From Apostichopus japonicus (lineage: Eukaryota > Echinodermata > Holothuroidea > Aspidochirotida > Stichopodidae), in contig NC_092563.1 in NCBI RefSeq assembly GCF_037975245.1, positions 1,515,001-1,579,000 of the forward strand: a stretch of DNA of 64,000 nt. Reading direction: 5' to 3'. Both the position numbers and the translations under genes were made by a program. The notes under the pieces were generated by a model that worked only from the letters and a program-made list of their open reading frames with translations, had not been told where the DNA came from and made no database searches. Position 1 is the first letter of the stretch, and each line of letters opens with the position of its first letter. Of this stretch, positions 339 to 64,000 are shown one piece after another.

Positions 339-3315
339 GCGGTGACAGCAAAACACTGATGCTGGTGCAAGTATCGCCTGTAGCCAAGAACTCTGGCGAG
401 TCGCAGTGCACCCTTAGTTTTGCTCAAAGGGTAAGATCGGTCGAGTTGGGTTCTGCTAAGAAGAAAGTAGAGACAGCAGAGATCGCAGCTCTCAGAGAAA
501 GACTCTCTCAATATGAGGTAGGTTTACAGTTGTTTAGTTTTTGGTTTTCAAACGGTTGCAAAATGAAAGTTGATGAACAAAGAAAGCAGTTATCCTTGAA
601 ATTCGAAACAGTGACATCAGTGTAAGACACTGCGCACTTGGTCCAATAATTTATTTGCCCTTTCAAGTTTGTGTTTACATTTCTAGTCAGTTTTCTGTTG
701 TTCATCTCTTTTGTATATTTCAAATTCAAGAGAGTTAAAATGAAAATGTTATAAAAGTTGTAACCCTTATTTGTCCTGACATTTTGTAAGAGATGGAAAG
801 ATTTACAGTTGGCACAGTTTCAGTTCAGTAACTCTTTAGAGATGTTGATTGAATATGTTATTTTTACTTAACTTGAAACATGCTGAATTGCCTACTATTT
901 TAAACAAAAGGCATGGTATCGAATGATGCTGGATAGCCACATTGTAAGAGTGCAGGAATTGTGTTCCTGACATCAATGGTATTGAGTCCTGTTGTTGCAT
1001 AAAATGGCTTTTACTTTTTCCAACATTTGTTCTTATTTTTCTATCGTTATATTTCCATTTATATTGTTGTCATTTTGTCACATAATTTGCTTTATCACCA
1101 CACAAATGCTGTTATCTTCTTATTTATTTTTATTGTTGCTATATTTGTCTCTTTTCTTCAAGTAGAGTTCTCGCAGTTTTTATTTATCACTTTTTTGATT
1201 TAATGCAAAGTTTAACCAATTAATGTAGGTGATCATTCACAAGAAAATTATTTTAAAAGTCTACAAATGACAAAGACTCAAATCAAGTATCATTGGTGAA
1301 TGGCCTGACTTGAAAGCTGGGGGGAGGTAGGGTTGTATTATAGAGTTAGAAATATCTCATTATTTTTGTGATTAAAACTAGGCTAAAAACGTACTTATTT
1401 GCCTTCATATAGAGTCATTTCTTTGTCAAGTCTGAATTGGGTCAAAATCTAACTCTTAACACTGATGTAGGAAGTTAAGAAGTCAATCGTAACCATTTCT
1501 TTATTATGAATTTCAACTATGCCTGCCGCACACTACACTGATCATGACGCAACTCGACTGTCGTTTCTGGATAATTGTTGATAGTCGGGTGTGTGTGCGT
1601 GGTCTTAAGATTACGACTGATCATGAATTTACCAGTCTTAAGTTGCGTCTGCTTCAGTCAGGCAGGCTGTAGAATTTTCCCCGACTGGTGTGGAAGCTGC
1701 CCAGTCTTCACAAATTCAACCAATCACGGGAATGTAATTCTGCATGTGACCTACACGACCATCTTTGGTTAACAGAAAGCAGTCGTTGTATGCACTTGTC
1801 AGTCATTCTGAGAGGCGGGGGAGGGGGGGGGTGGGGAGGGGAGGGGGCAGTCAAAAGCACAAACTAAGATTCCCCTTGTAATGACAGTCGAGTTGCATCG
1901 AGTCATGATCAGTCTAGTAGTGTGTGGCGAGCTTTAAGGTTCATCCGCCTCCCCTCCCGCAATACACAATATTCCTCAGCAGTTCTAGATCTCAGAATTA
2001 CATCAAAGAAACATGTCTGAAACGTAAAAAAAAAAAGGATTTGAACATAATTTACAAACCAACCTGACCTACACATCTCCAACTAACAACTGCAGTTCAT
2101 ACACCTTCTCATTTTAACCCGATTATGTTTCCTACGCCCTATGTATAACATGAATATTTCCTTGATCTTTTCACTAGGACTCTAGTGGGTAGTGACAGGG
2201 AGGTAACCTGTTGCATGGTTTTTATCTTTTGATATTTTTTGCATGTGACACATTTCTGTCTGTTTTGTCTCTGTTTCTATATGGAGTTTTCTTTGGGTCC
2301 TTTTTGTGGGTTATGATGATTGCATTTTAGTGGAATTTTAAACATATTAAAGGCCTGACCTAGTAATCTTGAGTGTTTTTTGTTTTTCCTGTGTGGTGTG
2401 CCTTAGAGGTTGAATAACGTTTGACTGTGCTCACCTGATGTACACCTATATAAAACAGAATTAACTGTAAACAGTGAAGAGTCAGTTACTTCTTAAAGAC
2501 ATCACAAATGTTTTGAATTAAATGATTAAATTGGCTTGATTTGATTGTTTGCTGCGCATTTATACTGTTCATTCAATATATATTTAGATTCAGATAGCAT
2601 GTCCAGTGTCCACCCTGTTTCCAGTTCACCCCAATTTTCAATATGTTAACTTAATTACTGCTGCTATAATTAATCAATAAGAATCTTGCCTTGGCTTGCT
2701 ATGTTGTTTAATTCCCAGCAGGGAGTTTGCATGTTTTATAATTATATTTCCCCAACTCAAAATGTTGCACTACGAAATGAGTCTGCTTGCATGGTACTAT
2801 CAACCTCTCATGCATATTATTGGAATTACCCCATGTTAAAATACCAGTAAATCTGGCACCACTTTTGTGGATGGCAATCAATGGCTTGCACAGGACTGGT
2901 TTCTATCTACAAAGTACTTAGTAGGTATCGATGGTTTATAGGTGATCCTGTAATGTGAATCTCACATGAAACTTTAGGTACATTTTCTCTGGTGAGAAGG
3001 GTTCAAACTGCAAAGAAAATGTAGATTTATACCTGAATTCCTATCTTGATGGTGAACAAAGAACTGCTTTTGGATGATCTGAAGTTACTGAAAATGGGAC
3101 TTTTCTTCAGATTTGCAAAAATGAAAACTGATACATTTTCTTCTCTTGAAGACTTAAGAAGTGAAAAAGCAAAGGTTAATTCAAGTACATTACAATATCA
3201 AGTCTTTTATTTGCCTCTTTTCTTTTCCCTACAGAATGGGGCCGTAGGTCAATATTCTTCACCAAAGCCGAAAGGAACGCCGTCCTCCAGAAAAGGCACA
3301 CCCAAAGCCAGATGA
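339..3315 (+). CDS. KIFC3: C-terminal-motor kinesin (kinesin-14, KIFC3-like), last two coding exons
   Basis: Two coding exons at 339-517 and 3235-3315 join in phase 0 and end in TGA at 3313-3315. The 5' part lies beyond the left edge. The first exon reads GGDSKTLMLVQVSP, the end of the kinesin motor core, then LSFAQRVRSVELG, the closing helix typical of KIFC2/KIFC3 kinesin-14 motors, which sit at the protein's C terminus. A short helical segment (AALRERLSQYE) and a basic Ser/Pro/Gly tail follow. Kinesin-14 proteins move toward microtubule minus ends; KIFC3 acts in organelle transport and at junctional microtubules. Splice sites are TTCAG at 338, GTAGGT at 518 and CTACAG at 3234. KIFC1 is unlikely because its end motif differs. 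KIFC2 cannot be excluded from so short a piece. Confidence 0.85.
518..3234 (+). other. Last intron of the KIFC3-like gene
   Basis: A 2.7-kb intron with GTAGGT donor and CTACAG acceptor. It holds one inverted-repeat element (about 1521-1932) with a G-run at 1816-1848. The rest is AT-rich sequence in which I see no exon-like reading frame. The open frame over 3046-3234 just before the last exon is intron read-through. Confidence 0.7.
1521..1932. mobile_element. Inverted-repeat element, family A copy 1 (MITE-like)
   Basis: The left end begins GCCTGCCGCACACTAC and runs through TGATCATGAC to ACTCGACTGTC. The right end, read on the other strand, begins GCTCGCCACACACTAC and also runs through TGATCATGAC to ACTCGACTGTC, giving roughly 45-50-bp imperfect terminal inverted repeats. 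The interior has no coding potential and contains a core word GCATGTGACCTA, also found in copies near 40.4 and 49.7 kb. This suits a non-autonomous DNA transposon. No convincing target-site duplication is visible, so the outer ends are approximate. Confidence 0.75.
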
Positions 3316-20500: not shown

Positions 20501-23500
20501 ACATTTTTAATATAAATATCTTGACTTCTCATCTTGGAAATATCAACTTTTAAGAGAGGACAAAATTTTGACATTGCAGGTCAAAATTATGACTTCCAAC
20601 TGAAATGTTCAATTTTTAGAGATAAATTATTTTTGCCACTATCAAATTCTCTTGTGTGTAATGATAAAATTTAAATTGATTCATTGTTATGTAATGAGTG
20701 TTCTACCACACGTGACCAATGTCAGTGCTTTCTTCATTGAACTTGTTCAAACATTGGCTGTAAGGTGAAAGGTCATAACTAAAAGAATTGTACAACAAAG
20801 TAATTTAATATTGCCATTGCATTAGGAGGGTGAAGCATACAACACAACAGTATTTTGATGTCACACTGTATATTATCAACTTTAACTTCTTGTTAATTCA
20901 AAGAATAATTTATCTGGTATTGCATAGCAAAATACTATTGATAGTGAACACTTTGGGTCACAAATTAGTGCATTTTTTACCGTTTGTGATAATCAAAAGG
21001 AAAATATCAAAACTCAAAAAATTAATCCCTTTACTTGTAAGCTCCTCCCCCTCCCCCTCCCTCCCCCTCCTCCTCAACAAGACAAATATGAACAGTCGGC
21101 CGACTGCTTCACAGCCATTCAGACGACTTACAGAATTTATCAGTTCCCGTTGTTGCTACTGGCATTTAGGGTTTTGTAGCCTTATATAGCAACCTAACTG
21201 GTCCTTTGATTTGGGTGAGGCCTCCCAGTAGGCTTCATGTTCATTTCATTATATTGTCTTGTTCTTGTCAATCATATACATGATTGATGGTTGTTTGTAT
21301 TAGTGTGTGGTTTTGTAGTGTGATATTGGGGTTGCTCTTCTGTCTTTCAAGGAACTCAACCTTGATTTTTCTAATTTTCTCCACACAATGCTAGACCCGT
21401 CAAGAGGCAGCTGAACAGAAGGAGTTGTTTCATCGTAAGAGAACAGAGATGGAGGGAGAGTTGGAGTCATCCAGGAGGAATGCTCAGGAGTTAGAGACGG
21501 CCCTGGAGGGCATGAAGGCTAAAAACAGACTTGAAAGAGATGCCATGCATGATATGCACATGCAAACCATTAAGGTGAGGCGATGGAGACCCACCCGGAA
21601 TTATTATAAAGTAACATGGGGCAGGAGATGATGGGTTTAGGACTTTAATTATTAACAACAACCACTATCTGTCTTGTATGACAACCATTCCTACCATCTT
21701 AGGTTTGTCAGAAGGTCAACATGCAGTTCATTTATGTACAGTATATTGCCTTGAGCTTTCTTTATACATCATGATTTTGTTGGGTTACTACTTTAGTCCC
21801 TCCACTATCCTAAACTGAAACTTGTAAGGACAATATCCCAAGTTCCTATCTTGCAATCATTCTGGTTATCAAAACAACTTAAGACTTCCAAAACGAGTCT
21901 GGGACTCAGTTTAATTGCGGTACAGTCCCCTTGGATGGGTGAATAGTTTGTGAGCGACGCTGTCAATTTACCTCCGCCCGAGATGATTGAAGAATACGCA
22001 CAGGGTGTGAGAGTGCCTTCATGTCGTCATTGAAGAATACGCACAGGGTGTGAGAGTGCCTTCATGATCATCATTTCTTGTAGAATACACACAGGGTGAG
22101 AGAGTGCCTTCATGATCATCATTTCTTGTATAATACACACAGGGTGTGAGAGTGCCTTCATGATCGTCATTTCTTGTAGAATACACACAGGGTGCGAGAG
22201 TGCCTTCATGTCGTCATTGAAGAATACGCACAGGGTGTGAGAGTGCCTTCATGATCATCATTTCTTGTAGAATACACACAGGGTGAGAGAGTGCCTTCAT
22301 GTCGTCATTGAAGAATACACACAGGGTGTGAGAGTGCCTTCATGATCGTCATTTCTTGTAGAATACACACAGGGTGCGAGAGTGCCTTCATGTCGTCATT
22401 GAAGAATATGCACAGGGTGAGAGAGTGCCTTCATGATCATCATTTCTTGTAAAATACGCACAGGGTGAGAGAGTGCCTTCATGATCATCATTTCTTGTAG
22501 AATACACACAGGGTGTGAGAGTGCCTTCATGATCATCATTTCTTGTAGAATACACACAGGGTGTGAGAGCGCCTTCATGAACATCATTTCTTGTAGAATA
22601 CACACAGGGTGTGAGAGTGCCTTCATGATCATCATTTCTTGTAGAATACACACAGGGTGAGAGAGTGCCTTCATGATCATCATTTCTTGTAGAATACGCA
22701 CAGGGTGAGAGAGTGCCTTCATGATCATCATTTCTTGTAGAATACGCACAGGGTGAGAGAGTGCCTTCATGATCATCATTTCTTGTAGAATACACACAGG
22801 GTGAGAGAGTGCCTTCATGATCATCATTTCTTGTAGAATACGCACAGGGTGAGAGAGTGCCTTCATGATCATCATTTCTTGTAGAATACGCACAGGGTGA
22901 GAGAGTGCCTTCATGTCGTCATTGAAGAATATGCACAGGGTGAGAGAGTGCCTTCATGATCATCATTTCTTGTAAAATACGCACAGGGTGAGAGAGTGCC
23001 TTCATGATCATCATTTCTTGTAGAATACACACAGGGTGTGAGAGTGCCTTCATGATCATCATTTCTTGTAGAATACACACAGGGTGTGAGAGCGCCTTCA
23101 TGATCATCATTTCTTGTAGAATACACACAGGGTGTGAGAGTGCCTTCATGATCATCATTTCTTGTAGAATACACACAGGGTGAGAGAGTGCCTTCATGAT
23201 CATCATTTCTTGTAGAATACGCACAGGGTGAGAGAGTGCCTTCATGATCATCATTTCTTGTAGAATACGCACAGGGTGAGAGAGTGCCTTCATGATCATC
23301 ATTTCTTGTAGAATACACACAGGGTGAGAGAGTGCCCTCATGATCATCATTTCTTGTAGAATACGCACAGGGTGAGAGAGTGCCTTCATGATCATCATTT
23401 CTTGTAGAATACGCACAGGGTGAGAGAGTGCCTTCATGATCATCATTTCTTGTAGAATACACACAGGGTGAGAGAGTGCCTTCATGATCATCATTTCTTG

Positions 23501-26500
23501 TAGAATACACACAGGGTGTGAGAGTGCCTTCATGATCGTCATTGAAGAATACACACAGGGTGAGAGAGTGCCTTCATGATCATCATTTCTTGTAGAATAC
23601 ACACAGGGTGAGAGAGTGCCTTCATGATCATCATTTCTTGTAGAATACACACAGGGTGAGAGAGTGCCTTCATGATCATCATTTCTTGTAGAATACGCAC
23701 AGGGTGCGAGAGAGTGCCTTCATGATCATCATTTCTTGTACTGTTATTTTCCTTCCAGACCATAACCACACCAAAAAAAAAGGCTGCATACAGTTTGCGG
23801 TCCAGATTGGTTCTGCGTAGCAGCGACACTCCAACAGCAGGCCAATCAGGGGAACCTTGTTATGATTCTACACCTCCCAGAGGAGACGATAGGGAGTTTC
23901 CGATGGGTATAATCGACGAAGAGGTGCCCGACCACGTACTGGAACAATGCACCGAAGCACTCACTGTCGAAGTCCAGAAACTTCAGGTATAGTCATAGAC
24001 ACATGATTATTATTATTTTTGTTCAATTTTTAAAAGAAGATTGATTGATGGAAGTTTATTCAATAATAGAAAGTAAACCCATTGAATCTGTAGAGCTTTA
24101 CCCTAGTTTTGGGTAGCAATGATATATGTGTTTAAGAATGTCAAGGGCTTTGGTAAAATTTTGAAGATCTGAAAGCCCTATTTAGAGCTCATTCATGTAA
24201 TACAGATTCAGAACACATAGTCATTTACTTAAAGGTAATGTGTCTGCATACTTCTTAGCAAACAAACAGCTTCTAACAAACGAAACCAAAGTACTAAATT
24301 GTAACTGTCATAACTGTAATCATAATGCCAGCTGTTGAAACAATAAAACTAAAGATGAGTTCGAAAAATAATTTTGGGTATAGACAGATCTTTCTTTGTT
24401 TGCAAATATGAGACAAGTTTAGGTGTAGGGAGGGGTGACCTTACTACTAGGGCTAACTTATTGCACTGGATATAGTCCAACGAACACCTTTGAGCTAAGA
24501 CATTAAAGTCAGGATCACACACACACACACATATATTTAATTCTCAAGACAATATATGTATTTGACACTGGTGAAAAATTGTGTACAATTATGTAATTTG
24601 ATCATGAAGTTTGCATTGTCTTGTACCTTTGTCACACTTATTAATTCTGGATCTTTTGAGCTGTTTCTCTAGATTTTAACCCTAACCCATACCCTTTTCT
24701 TCCTTTAATTCCCTTCAGGAAAAAAACACAGAGCTTCACAACCAGCAAGAGGTTAGTGAAGAAAATGTTATGAAGATGGCGCAGCAAATTTCAAAGCTGG
24801 AATACCAGAATGAGGTGAGCTACTGTTTTGCTTTTAATAACAAAATAGCATGAAAAGAAAAATTAACTAAAGGAACAGCATCTCTAAAAAAAATAGCTAC
24901 GCTGCATCCCCTCCCCACTCCGCACCTACCCACACTCCCAAGTTTTGGAAGAAAACCTTAAAATATCCCATTTCCATTTTTATGATGTTAGAAAGTACCC
25001 TTTCTCCCACATGCAAAGTAAGTTACTGTTTTTGATCAACTTCAAGTGCTCTTTTCTTGAACAAGAGTTTAAAGGAAATTGTGTGATTTCCCCACACAAA
25101 ACAAAGTCAATCATCCCCATGTTCCTCAAAGTTGGTACAGCTTTTGTTTTTACCAGGATTGAAGATGAAAACGATGCATTATCTTTACAAGAGGATATCA
25201 ATAAGCTGCATCTATGGTCTGAGTAATGGCAAATGTTATTTAATGTTAGCAAGTGTAAGATTCTGCACTTTGGTCATAATAACCATCGTTTCAACTACTT
25301 TATGAATGGTCAGCCATTAGAGACAGTGAATGAAGAAAAGGATCTTGGTGTTATTGTTTCAAGCTCTCTCAAATTAAATACACAAGTTGTTGCCTGTGTG
25401 AAAAGAGCCAACAGGATTTTGGGAATGATTTACAGTACTTTTGAAACTAAGGAACATGAATTAATGTTGCAACTTTATAAATCTCTTGTTTGTCCACACT
25501 TGGAATTTGCCATTCAAGCTTGGAACCCATATTTAAAAGGTGATATAGATTATCTGGAAAAAGTACAGAGAAGATTTACAAGGATGATACCTGTTTTGCA
25601 GCATTTGCCATACAATGAAAGACTTTCTGCTCTAAATCTCACAACATTATCCACCAGAAGACTAAGAGGAGATTTAATTGAAGCTTTTAAAATTATGAAA
25701 GGTTTCGTAAAAGCTAGCCCTCAATTATGGTTTGAATTTAGCGACATCTCTTTTACTAGAGGCCATTCAATGAAACTGTGCGCAAAATATTCAAAATTGA
25801 ATGTACGCAGACATTTTTTTTCGATCAGGGTTGTATCCGAAATGGAATGCCCTTCCACAGTCTGCCATTGATGCTACCAGTATTAATCAGTTCAAGGGAC
25901 TTTTGGACAGACATCTGCATTGTAGGGGAGTTACAAGAGCTGTGCTCTCTCTCCCTTCTTCATCCCACACTACATCTGTCTAGTGATGAGGTGTGGGATA
26001 CAGGTGAATACAGGTGAATAAACACATACAAAAGACTGAAAACAAAGATAGATTTGCGAAATAATTAAATTTTATTCAAACCATTGAATATGCACCAAAA
26101 AGGTGAATTATCTTTTCTGCATTTCGTTACGTCTAGTTCACAACTTAGTGTTAATGTTTGTTGAATCCATTTAATCTGATCAACAGTTGCACTCTGAGGA
26201 GAAGACAGAATGGAGTCAGATGAAAGAAAACTTAATGCATCAGGTCGAGAAGTTAACTGAGGAGCTCTCCACTCTCAGGAATACATATGAGAGTAAGAAT
26301 ATTTGTATTATCTTTTGTCTTGTAAATATGTAGATATATTGCATGGAGGGTATTAAATACAGTGTTAATACTGTAACACAGTGTTAACACTGTTATCATT
26401 TAGTTACAGGGATAGTCCAGATTAAAGATATTTAGTTTAATAGTTTAATATTTAGATTAATAGAAGAGGAATGTGCTCTGAGCATGCTGCTGGTGAAATT

Positions 26501-32800: not shown

Positions 32801-35800
32801 CTCAGAAACATCCAAGTTATGCTACTTAGAAACATCCAAATTTAAACTACTCAGAAACAACCAATGAAAATTAATCAGAAACATCCAAATTTAAACTACT
32901 CAGAACATCCAATTTAAACTACTCAGAAACATCCAATTATCTTACTCAGAAACATCCAATTAAAATTTCTCAGAAACATCCAATTTAAACTAGTCAGGAA
33001 CATTGAATTTAAATTTACTCCTTCTTCCTTCTGAAGATAAGAACTTTGCAAGATGACCTACAGGAGATGAATTGTCAGCACTCTGACCTATTGATAGAGA
33101 TGGAGAAACAAGAAACCTTGCTGCAAAGCTCACAAGCAGATTGTGAAGATCTTAATGAATGTATCGCAGATTTGGAGAAAAAGGTGAGTCATGTAACACA
33201 TTTTACACTTGTCTAAGGTTGCACAAGTTGTTTTCTCTTGTTGTTTGTATCAAGTTCAAAATTTTACATCCTAGCAACGGAATAACTTACAGTATCTTGA
33301 TGGGAGTTGGAACTTGGATCAGTGTGTTCCTATTTACTTGTCCTGTATAAGACACTTTTTAAACCTCAGAATTCATTGTATCTGTTGTAACAGGCACATC
33401 AGTGTATGTATCATATCAGATAACCACATGGCTTGTGTCAGCTATATTCACACGCACTATGAACAGGCACATCAGTGTATGTATCATATCAGATAACCAC
33501 ATGACTTGTGTCAGCTGTATTCCCACACACTTTGAACAGGCACATCAGTGTATGTATTATATCAGATAACCACATGGCTTGTGTCAGCTATATTCACACA
33601 CACTATAAAGCTGTACTTTGTTCCCATGCTGATCCACCACAGTTGGGCTAAGTTCAGGCTACCAGCGGGTTTTCATAAATCCGACTCACTGAACAAAAAG
33701 AATGGTAAAGATGGTTGATTTATAACATGTTGAGTTTATGTGATGAGGTATTTGAACATAACAACAGATGATCAATGCTCGTGTAAAACTGTCTGTAAAA
33801 CTGTAAATATGTCACATATTCATCATTCTCACAGTAGTACCTACATCCTTTGCTGTTGCAGCATGTGCATGGATTGGGTACAAAGTTTCACTGTGGTCCT
33901 TTAGATTGATTTCACACCCATCCCTTTGCCTAAACTACTCTTTACCAAAAGGGATTTATACAGAATGTTCTAGATAGTACTGATTAAAGCAACTCGTTTC
34001 TCAGGTTCTGAAGGCTAAATGATCAACAATGCATTTTCAACCTATCTGGTTATCTCACTCCTTAAAGGTGAGTGACTATTATCTCTGGAAAACCTCTTGT
34101 TCAGACACAATTTTCTGTTAATACTGGAATAATCCTAGTCTTCTTGTTGCCTTCCACAGCTCAAAGATATAGAGCAACAGCTGGAAGAAACACAGGCTAA
34201 CATCTCCACGGTAATGGTGGAGAGCGCCCACTCATTGGAGGCACAGGAAACCATGCAAGAACTAGAGTCATATCCTTTGATAGTTTCCCTCTTGGGAAGT
34301 GGAATCTACGACTATTAATTGCAAAAATAAGTGGAATCTACAACTATTCATTGAAAAAATAATTGGAAACTAAGACTATTCATTGCAAAAATAAATTGAA
34401 TAAATCTTTCCTTTTCTTTGGAAGGATATGTTAATAATTGTTTAAACAACTTTCAGGGTAATTTTTGAAGTTAACTTTGGATGGACTTGGCATGGTGAGT
34501 TTATTAAATGAGTCCTCCTGTATCAACATTAACTGATGCAACATTATGATTTAACTCTCCACTTTGTGCAATTAAATTAAGAATACTTTCCATTTTTCCC
34601 TTCCATGGACATCTGGGCATAGCTGTTTACTGCTAGTCAATTTGGACACGAAGAAATACTTTTAAATATGATTTGTGTGGAATGTGCACAAATTACTTCT
34701 GTGAACTTTCCTGGTGGAATGTGAATGATTTAAGTCAAGTTATTGACTTTTGTTTAGAAAGACAAATGCAATGCATGTAATGTAACTAATAGCATTTCAT
34801 CTTATCATAGTTATGGTGTTTAAGTTTTAGTAACAGTTAATATCACAAAGTTATTTATGTCTTTCCTTAATGTTGTTTTCTCCACTTTGAGATCTTCCCA
34901 AGGGAAATTTATGCAGTTATCTGAAAGTTACGAGAATGTGTGTGAAGAACTGGAGAAGATGCGAGAAGAGAAAAACAAAGATATCAGAAACCTCAAGGTA
35001 AGTCTTCCACCTTGCTCTTGATTAGTCTGTTTCTATGTAAATAAAAGCTCAAGTCAATAATACATAATGTACTACTACCAATGTCAAACAGATCAAGAGT
35101 CCCAAGAGAAATAGTAAGAGAAAATTGCTCATATATTATACCTTGTTTTTAACATTTACTTACATCACATTGGATTACATGACTGATTGATTCTTCTCTA
35201 ACTTGGATTTCTAAAGAATTATCTAAATGTTCTTGTATTGTAAGGTGACCAGACGTCCCCGATTTTCGGGGACAGTCCCCGATTACAGTGTGCTGTCCCC
35301 GATTCGTCAAAATGTTCAGGAATTTCGAAAATATCACACATTATTAGTAAAATAATTGTAAAAACAAAATTTAGTCAAGTGTGCAGTCTCAGAACGGAAC
35401 TAATAACCAGTATTTCAGGTGGGCCAGTGTCAAGTGGAAACACTGTTAAAATATGCTAGATCGATCTAGCCTAGCACTCTTTCGACCATATAATTGGCAA
35501 CTACGGCGACACAACAACACTTTATATAGTGTGAGCATGAGCAACTCACAAGCTCTCAAAGAATCACGTAAAGTAAGTGAATTTCATCTAAGAAAAAGCT
35601 ACATTTTTGAAATAAAATTGATTTAAAAAGTGCTTCTGAGTATCACCATTTTGCATCTGAGCACCTTAGGCACTTGAAAATTTTCCAAAGGGGAGGGGGA
35701 CACCCCCACCCCTCCCCCATATCAGTCACGCAACAAATGTCCCTGATTCCAGTCAGGAAATTATGGTCACCTTATTGTATTGGTAATAAAGCATCTTGTA

Positions 35801-47976: not shown

Positions 47977-61109
<13,133 letters not shown>

Positions 61110-64000
61110 CTGGGAAAGAGAATTAAATAGTACCAAAGAGTATTATTTCCTGAACAAAATCTACAAGAAAATGATGATGGATTTTTCATCAAATCATTTC
61201 TCAGTTTTGGTTCATTAAACTAGTACGAAATTTGTATGTTTACTTCATTGCCATAACTTGAGTGTGAAATCTTCTCGTTCAAGTCAGGGATGGAACAAAT
61301 TCATATCCACATAGAATCTACAGAACATACACTGTTTCATTGACATTTACACTTACTTTACCACCAATTTCTGACATACAAAGTCAAAATGATATTTCCC
61401 ATTCCCAGAGTCCAGGCACCCTACAGGACCTTATCCCAATATTCTCTTGTTACTTGAATGAGAGTGAGCTGGATATTGTATAACATGAAAAACCTCTCTT
61501 TTTGTGTAATTCTCTCATCAATCTCTCTTTCCCTCTCCATCTCTCATCCCAGCAAGTGAAAAATATCTTCAATTCCTGGGAATGTTGTTCACCACTAACA
61601 TTCAATGAAGAAGACTTAGTGTAGTATATACAAAGAATCAAAGCAACTTGGGATACAAAGGATTTTTTATATTCGATATTTGACCGGATTTGCGAGCACA
61701 GTAGCTAACAATGCATTTAAGAAATATATAAAATCAGCTTTTTAATATTTTGAAATTTGAATATTTTGAAATTAATAATTTGAAATTTCAATACACTTAA
61801 AGGAAACCTGGATTATGCACTTAGATCCCCCACTAGCAAAAAAAACCCACTTTCACTCCCTATCACAATACAGTATTTATTTTCATCCTAAACTATCACA
61901 CATAGTATCTGCCTGCAAGCCTAACCTGCATTAGAGTAAAGTCAATGTTAGGCTATGCTGCAGCCTATAACAAACTCCTTTTGAACTGCTTTTCATATTA
62001 TGGTTTGATTTCCTAGTTGCATCATTTAACAGGTGTAAATTTAACATTTGAAAGATGTATTCTTGCTTATATTTCCAGCTCAGGTCAAATGTTGTGATAA
62101 CATAAAAATATATCCCAATTAATATGAATTGTGATTCACATTGGTATCGTTCGTTCTGATGAAAGTTGTATGTACAAACAGCACCCACTTGTAATGCAAC
62201 GACCTATGCAGTTAGCGACACAGTTTAGCCAATGGCAATTGGTTCCAATTTCTCTGGTACTATGTACGGATGCCCATAAGCTAATTTCCAATTGCCAACA
62301 AACTCTCCAATTGTTGTGAGGTGTAACGCACATTTTATCTAATAGGCTGGTCTGTTGGAGATACAGTAGATTACGAAACAAGGTTTCCACAATTTGACCT
62401 CTGGTGACTCCAACCGAATTTGACCAGTGCCACAACATTCAATAGGCTTCTTCCACTCAATGTGGTTCTTCTTCACACAAAATATGAGATTGGTCCAAGT
62501 TTCCTCTATGATATATCGTGTTTACAAGGTTTTCACAACTTGACCCCTAGTGACCACTAATGAACTTTGACCTCGACCAAAAACAATACGCTCCTTAATG
62601 TGGTACTTCTTCACACAAAATATGAGATTGATCCAATCTTCCCTTCTTGAGATATCGTGTTTACAAGCAATGTATCACACATACTCATCCGCCTGCATAA
62701 CCACATACAGTAGGTTTACGATTATCATTGAAACCAAAGAAAACTTCAACATTTATATCAAATTTATTCCACCTTTACTACTCTCCTCATGATATAAATA
62801 TATATTTCAAAGGAAATTTATAGCATTTGTCGTACAAATTGTGTAAGTAACAAGATGTGCGTGGTACAACCTCAATTTTATTTATGAAATGCTGTATTTA
62901 GACCCAACAAATTTGTCACTGTTATTCTTCAAGGGCTGGGAATGTCCTCATATATTTGCACTTCTTATCTCATTTCACCTGTTTGTAGTTTACAGTTGTG
63001 GCTTCATGTACAACACTGTGCAGTAGGTCGTCCCAAAATATCTTGTTGGTTGACATGACATAGAATTCCAGACTATAAAGTGGAGTTTAACAATGAGCCT
63101 TTAATTAGAGTTAGGATTCTAGTTATAGTTATTCCTTTTGCAAGTCTAAAAGGGAGATCTATTTGTTAAAAATCTCCCACTGACTAATATGAATAGAAAG
63201 TTAAGGTTATGTATCTAGACCTTTTCAACCCTAACCCCACACTGCTCCCTTCCTTACGCTACAGAAACTTCTGGATTGTGTTGATTTTCAAAATCCAGTC
63301 ATATTTTGGGGGCTTAATCAAGCAAATCAGGTACAGTATCCAGCTAGATTTGTAATGCCAAATCTGGGATATCCCTACACACAACAAGAAACCTCATCAC
63401 CAATTCCATAATAATAGGAAAAGGAACATTTGTGTTCTTTAGTTTACCTATATCAATTTTGTTACCCTTTATGAGCAAGGTCAAGGATGAAGCTAAAACC
63501 CACCTTTGCAACATAGCCTAGGCCAACTAACAAGTAACATACCAGTATGCCTAGGCCTACACCTAATTGGGCCAAATAAGATTGCACTCTAAATGGGTTT
63601 TTTTCTGCATGTTAAATGGTGCCGACACATTCAGCATAGGCTGTCGTCAATTTTACTGTGGCAAAACCAAATGGGCGATAAACTAACACAGTAACAGCAG
63701 TAACAGTAAATTCCTGCTAACCTGAATGTAGGTTAGTCTAAAAACAATACCTGACGTTTATTAACCTGTCCCTGATTCATGCTGCGTGAAATGTATTAAT
63801 AAATTCGCTACACTTAGGGATTGGGTAGGCTAAATACTAAGTCTACGTGTGTAGGCAGTATGACAGTATGAGCATGACACTTGACAGAACTAAGGAAGTG
63901 TTTTGCCATGGCTAGGTCACACATGTTGCAACGCTTGTGAACGTTAGGCTACCACAGTACCATGTACAGTTAACAACGGAAAATCGTTTTTCCGACGATA
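61110..64000. other. Upstream flank or first intron of PRPF4B
   Basis: AT-rich sequence with no exon I can support. It contains a pair of about 138-bp repeats near 62370-62680. The last kilobase has AGGCCTA-rich words like those in KIF15 intron 1. It is probably PRPF4B intron 1, since the acceptor at 61110-61112 needs an upstream exon. Confidence 0.5.
62370..62680 (-). repeat. About 138-bp GGTCA-rich repeat, two copies
   Basis: CTTCACACAAAATATGAGAT recurs at 138-bp spacing (62471 and 62609). On the minus strand each unit carries GGTCAAA and GGGGTCA words in the same order as the pair at 36781-37060, so both belong to one dispersed family. Confidence 0.65.

What the first reader, a model, noticed from the sequence alone, without database searches (positions are those of the whole stretch)
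34270..34885. AT-AC, U12-type intron inside KIF15
Exact ATATCCTTT donor, TTCCTTAAT branch-point motif and an AC acceptor about 15 bases later are the three hallmarks of a minor-spliceosome intron. All other KIF15 introns I placed are GT-AG. The join keeps a 1,409-residue frame. A competing in-frame GT-AG route (34211-34915) would skip 30 codons, so the two spliceosomes could give alternative stalk lengths.
Basis: partly seen in the sequence, partly recalled or inferred. Interest (0 to 1): 0.72.

Follow-up and report, generated by a model that had tools for sequence, protein, structure and literature searches.

The report
Ordinary minor-spliceosome intron in KIF15
One intron of this KIF15 mitotic motor gene carries the exact signals read by the rare second splicing machine that many animals have, and the same genome holds the RNA genes of that machine, so this looks like a sound but ordinary new example of a known kind of intron.

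Summary
The intron at 34270-34885 is as described: donor ATATCCTTT 9/9, branch site TTCCTTAAT 9/9 (34863-34871), first downstream AC at 34884-34885. It joins exons 34160-34269 and 34886-34997 in phase 2 with an open frame, in a KIF15 gene (537.9 bits to a KIF15 structure against 275.8 to KIF4). One of 60 resampled windows held an exact donor/branch/terminus pair. The same genome gives over-cut-off matches to U11, U12, U4atac, U6atac and CCDC84/CENATAC, and its own U11, U6atac and U12 can pair with the signals. A U12-type AT-AC intron is very likely. Transcripts and KIF15 orthologues could not be tested. New member of a known kind; low interest.

The parts
34160..34269 (+). KIF15 exon 28 of my model (110 nt), upstream of the U12-type intron; ends with two bases of a split TC|T Ser codon (phase 2)
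   Evidence: AG acceptor score 12.0; open frame into exon 29
34270..34885 (+). AT-AC U12-type intron, 616 nt, intron 28 of my model
   Evidence: donor 9/9, branch site 9/9, AC terminus
34270..34278 (+). U12-type 5' splice site ATATCCTTT
   Evidence: exact consensus; +4 to +9 can form 6 base pairs with the host's own U11 and U6atac
34863..34871 (+). U12-type branch site TTCCTTAAT
   Evidence: exact consensus; 7 base pairs predicted with the host's own U12 snRNA, -7.4 kcal/mol
34884..34885 (+). AC 3' splice site, first AC after the branch site
   Evidence: sequence; 15-16 bases from the candidate branch adenosines
34886..34997 (+). KIF15 exon 29 of my model (112 nt), downstream of the U12-type intron
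   Evidence: open frame; GT donor score 11.9
34890..34891 (+). AG six bases downstream, possible minor AT-AG tandem acceptor (drops 2 codons, in frame)
   Evidence: frame check; AT-AG combinations are described as disfavoured (PMC3584512, passage)
   Evidence: donor 5.3, acceptor -0.2; would drop 30 codons
9238..41646 (+). KIF15 gene, 35 coding exons in my model; 5' end uncertain
   Evidence: dynamic-programming model with hand edits; motor best matches KIF15 structures

Best explanation
A conventional U12-type (minor) AT-AC intron in the coiled-coil stalk of KIF15. The U11/U12 di-snRNP would bind ATATCCTTT and TTCCTTAAT, U6atac would replace U11 at the 5' splice site, CENATAC would help as reported for AT-AN introns in human cells, and exons 28 and 29 would be joined in phase 2. 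Shown here: the sequence signals, the open join, the gene's identity, and snRNA and CENATAC matches in the same genome, with snRNAs that can pair with the signals. Inferred: that the intron is actually removed by this route in cells.
For: Exact 9/9 donor and 9/9 branch site, against at most 7/9 donor and 8/9 branch in the 32 other introns scored. Open 74-codon join between a strong AG acceptor and a strong GT donor. GT-AG alternatives nearby are weak or out of frame. Over-cut-off genome matches, one reported for each (counts are lower bounds): U12 115.9 bits (cut-off 53), U4atac 72.2 (53), U6atac 104.2 (33), U11 88.7 (39); three collinear CCDC84/CENATAC stretches on C12 (75.5, 32 and 30.8 bits, cut-off 25.3; the first with one stop inside the scored stretch). 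Predicted duplexes of the host's own U11, U6atac and U12 with the intron. Phase 2 agrees with the reported bias of U12 introns against phase 0 (PMC7367187, passages).
Against: No transcript data. The branch-to-AC distance (15-16) is a little longer than the cited optimum of 11-13 (PMC3584512 and PMC6717393, passages). A genome-wide count of TTCCTTAAC N(6-11) AC shows no excess over its reversed control (2,347 against 3,908; it tested the AAC form, not this intron's AAT form), so that count gives no support. In the gene-model test the U12 route won by 28.7 units, but 20 of these I had assigned to the U12 sites myself and the codon table had been retrained on the U12-route model. Looser motif matching is not enriched in the window. 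No orthologue was available.
Confidence: 0.95

Rival explanations
1. The exons are joined by the major spliceosome through a GT-AG route (34211-34916, the reader's alternative) that drops 30 codons, as the main or an alternative isoform.
For: In frame and open once corrected by one base; the donor score 5.3 lies inside the range of the model's 32 GT donors (3.6 to 12.6).
Against: Acceptor 34917 scores -0.2, below the model's 33 AG acceptors (lowest 3.2), with no pyrimidine tract. The best-scoring any-frame pair, 34211 with 34903 (10.4), shifts frame. It would leave an exact U12 donor and branch site unexplained.
Confidence: 0.03
2. The AT-AC intron is real but is spliced by the major spliceosome, as known for a few AT-AC introns.
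For: U2-type AT-AC introns exist (PMC6717393 and PMC2831892, passages).
Against: The AT-AC U2-type introns of sodium channel genes all carry G at +5 (PMC2831892, passage); this donor has C at +5 and the full U12 motif. The exact U12 branch site is also present.
Confidence: 0.01
3. KIF15 uses this intron as a switch (an addition to the best explanation, not exclusive of it): retention (stop codon about 16 codons into the intron) or joint skipping of exons 28 and 29 (in frame) tunes the motor when minor-spliceosome activity falls.
For: Frame checks; minor-spliceosome inhibition causes skipping of exons flanking minor introns (PMC8034651, abstract and passages); CENATAC loss retains AT-AN introns and causes chromosome segregation errors (PMC8280824, abstract and passages).
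Against: No expression data. 'KIF' and 'kinesin' do not occur in the main text of the CENATAC paper. In-frame joint skipping can arise by chance, as 22 of the 34 introns of my model are phase 0.
Confidence: 0.07

Closest known systems
U12-type AT-AC introns of animals (minor or U12-dependent introns)
   Same: Exact 5' splice site, branch site, AC terminus, short branch-to-acceptor distance, a lone minor intron among major introns in my model, host minor snRNAs present
   Different: Nothing structural; the host gene name KIF15 did not occur together with U12-type, minor intron, minor spliceosome, U12 or AT-AC in the held papers; intron databases and supplementary tables were not searched
CENATAC-dependent AT-AN minor introns (PMC8280824)
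   Same: AT-AC subtype in a mitosis gene; CCDC84/CENATAC matches are in the genome
   Different: Dependence on CENATAC is not shown here, and 'KIF' and 'kinesin' are absent from that paper's main text

Membership tests
U12-type AT-AC intron | 5' splice site ATATCCTT(T) (consensus recalled) | tested here: met
   ATATCCTTT at 34270, 9/9
U12-type AT-AC intron | Branch site TTCCTTRAY (recalled) close to the 3' splice site | tested here: met
   TTCCTTAAT 9/9; 15-16 bases to the last intron base, slightly above the cited 11-13 optimum
U12-type AT-AC intron | AC terminus | tested here: met
   34884-34885
U12-type AT-AC intron | Junction joins coding exons in frame | tested here: met
   74 open codons across exons 28 and 29
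U12-type AT-AC intron | Host has minor spliceosomal snRNAs able to pair with the signals | tested here: met
   U12, U4atac, U6atac and U11 above cut-off; predicted pairing of U11, U6atac and U12
U12-type AT-AC intron | Removal depends on the minor spliceosome in cells | not testable with these tools
   needs RNA and snRNA knock-down
U12-type AT-AC intron | Same-position minor intron in orthologues | not tested
   no orthologous KIF15 gene was reached; one viral-contig scan with 204 residues of the stalk found none
KIF15 (kinesin-12) | Motor domain closest to KIF15 | tested here: met
   537.9 bits to KIF15 (7ryp) against 275.8 to KIF4, the best non-KIF15 row of the 60 of 154 shown
   acceptor below the range of the model's 33 AG acceptors; better-scoring pairs out of frame

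The most novel reading that the evidence does not exclude
An AT-AC minor intron in the stalk of a mitotic kinesin makes KIF15 output depend on CENATAC and U6atac levels, with retention or in-frame joint skipping of exons 28 and 29 as the output, so that AT-AC splicing directly sets spindle-motor dose in this lineage.
Probability: 0.06. Interest if true: 0.5.

Novelty: new member of a known kind. Interest (0 to 1): 0.18.

Why it matters
It adds a clean AT-AC minor intron in a mitotic motor gene and points to a simple test of whether KIF15 is among the cell-division genes that depend on AT-AC splicing. By itself it changes no view of minor introns.

Tried and rejected
Open in-frame GT/GC-AG pairs with donors in 34166-34400 and acceptors in 34781-34985 were ranked: 60 found, best 12 printed, highest summed score 5.6. 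Other U12-type introns in KIF15: 33 introns of the model scored (the uncertain first one left out); only this one matches both motifs fully. A retrocopy that would record the splice was sought in the own genome with joined exons 28+29: three matches reported, the two exons themselves and a genomic copy of exon 29 on C12, which lies in a rearranged, intron-bearing copy of KIF15 pieces. Genome-wide motif counts: ATATCCTTT 12,168 against 9,577 reversed, but no excess for branch site plus AC (2,347 against 3,908); neither is used as support. Scan of viral contigs with 204 residues of the stalk: 11 pattern matches, none a relative. Rfam scan of the window at gathering cut-offs: 0 matches. Papers: KIF15 with U12-type, minor intron, minor spliceosome, U12 or AT-AC gave 0 papers each; kinesin-12 with minor spliceosome 0; kinesin with four minor-intron terms 0; KIF15 with ZRSR2 gave 1, on prostate cancer, seen as a listing only. 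A broader search listed 20 of 479 papers, none of the 20 holding KIF15. 'Kinesin' is absent from the main texts of PMC6717393, PMC8280824, PMC10639083 and PMC2831892. All papers were seen as listings, abstracts or passages, none whole. A positive control with a recalled prohibitin-2 protein did not complete.

Full report
What is there. The reported interval 34270-34885 begins ATATCCTTT, holds TTCCTTAAT at 34863-34871 and ends in AC. It lies between exon 34160-34269, entered by an AG acceptor, and exon 34886-34997, left by a GT donor (scores 12.0 and 11.9). Joined, the two exons give 74 open codons, and the intron falls in phase 2.

The gene. I built a gene model by dynamic programming over splice-site and codon scores (recalled vertebrate values), dropped two zero-length exons and took the short motor exons that the stricter run missed or clipped from the looser run. 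The model has 35 coding exons (9238-41646, 1,467 residues). The motor part matches KIF15 structures at up to 537.9 bits; the next kinesin among the 60 of 154 rows shown, KIF4, has 275.8. Of 34 introns, 33 are GT-AG and one is AT-AC, but the model allowed only GT and AG elsewhere. Scored against the U12 consensus (33 introns, the uncertain first one left out), this intron has 9/9 and 9/9; the other 32 reach at most 7/9 at the donor and 8/9 at the branch.

Chance. An exact donor, an exact branch site and a fitting terminus within 5 kb occur once on the real + strand; 60 first-order Markov resamples averaged 0.017, with 1 of 60 having one. Looser matching shows no enrichment (3 real against 2.57 with a donor mismatch allowed; 35 against 57.2 with one in each motif). 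The weight rests on exactness and on the pair sitting on the ends of two coding exons in frame. The GT-AG-only gene model scored 621.0 against 649.8 with the U12 route. Of that gap 20 units were my own score for the U12 sites, the codon table had been retrained on the U12-route model, and the GT-AG-only run had a laxer acceptor floor; its solution passed through a one-base exon at 34457.

The machinery. It gives one reported over-cut-off match each (counts are lower bounds) to U12 (115.9 bits), U4atac (72.2), U6atac (104.2) and U11 (88.7), and three collinear stretches matching CCDC84/CENATAC, the factor reported to promote AT-AN minor introns (PMC8280824, abstract and passages). Read from the genome itself, U11 and U6atac are each predicted to form 6 base pairs with +4 to +9 of the donor, and U12 7 with the branch site.

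Weak points. There is no RNA evidence. The branch-to-acceptor distance, 15-16, is above the cited optimum of 11-13 (PMC3584512, passage). A genome-wide count of branch site (AAC form) plus AC shows no excess over a reversed control (2,347 against 3,908). No orthologue could be compared.

The alternative route. As written (34211-34915) it shifts frame and meets a stop; one base longer (34211-34916) it drops 30 codons in frame. Its acceptor scores -0.2, below the model's 33 AG acceptors (3.2 to 13.6; these were picked with a floor of about 1). Two other in-frame open pairs score slightly higher in sum (5.6 and 5.3 against 5.0), each with a poor donor. The best GT-AG pair in any frame, 34211 with 34903 (10.4), and the next seven are out of frame. 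A review states that alternative splicing at U12-type introns appears almost absent in humans and that AT-AG combinations are disfavoured (PMC3584512, passages). If the minor spliceosome fails, two outcomes are more natural: retention, with a stop about 16 codons into the intron, or skipping of flanking exons, as reported under inhibition (PMC8034651, abstract and passages). Skipping both exons keeps the frame (222 nt); skipping either alone does not.

A decayed copy. A rearranged, partly inverted copy of KIF15 pieces lies at C12:19.072-19.102 Mb (84-96% identical by piece of 150 bases or more, minisatellite pieces 79-91%). It holds the 3' part of this intron from about 34365 on and exon 29, but not the donor. 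Its branch site reads TTCCTTCAT while the AC is kept. It retains introns, so it is not a retrocopy and gives no record of splicing.

Verdict. A well-supported AT-AC U12-type intron in KIF15: a new member of a known kind, of low interest. The regulatory reading is open but unsupported. KIF15 did not occur together with minor-intron terms in the paper searches made, which do not cover intron databases or supplementary tables.

Noticed in passing
own genome G000:C12:19071916-19101901 (L011, L012-L017) against window 10.1-14.3, 20.1-28.4, 34.4-36.0 and 39.7-40.0 kb: A rearranged, partly inverted copy of KIF15 pieces with introns, 84-96% identical by piece (minisatellite pieces 79-91%). One breakpoint falls near 34365, inside the 32-base tandem repeat of the U12-type intron; the copied branch site is TTCCTTCAT. 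The 39.7-40.0 kb piece (96%) may be a dispersed repeat.
   Followed up: partly
window 34297-34401: Tandem repeat of a 32-base unit, 3.3 copies, just inside the U12-type intron.
   Followed up: no
window 22030-23740: Minisatellite of a 48-base unit, 36 copies, ending just before KIF15 exon 18 (23759); the window has many such arrays (34 rows, some overlapping).
   Followed up: no
window 339-517 (+): Exon like the end of a kinesin motor domain (Pfam Kinesin 27.6 bits, below the 29.3 cut-off); by recall it resembles a C-terminal-motor (KIFC-type) kinesin, so a second kinesin gene seems to end upstream of KIF15.
   Followed up: partly
window 55903-61219 (-): Several charged, RS/KH-rich reading frames that by recall resemble the N-terminal part of the splicing kinase PRPF4B; the four frames sent to Pfam gave no match.
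   Followed up: partly
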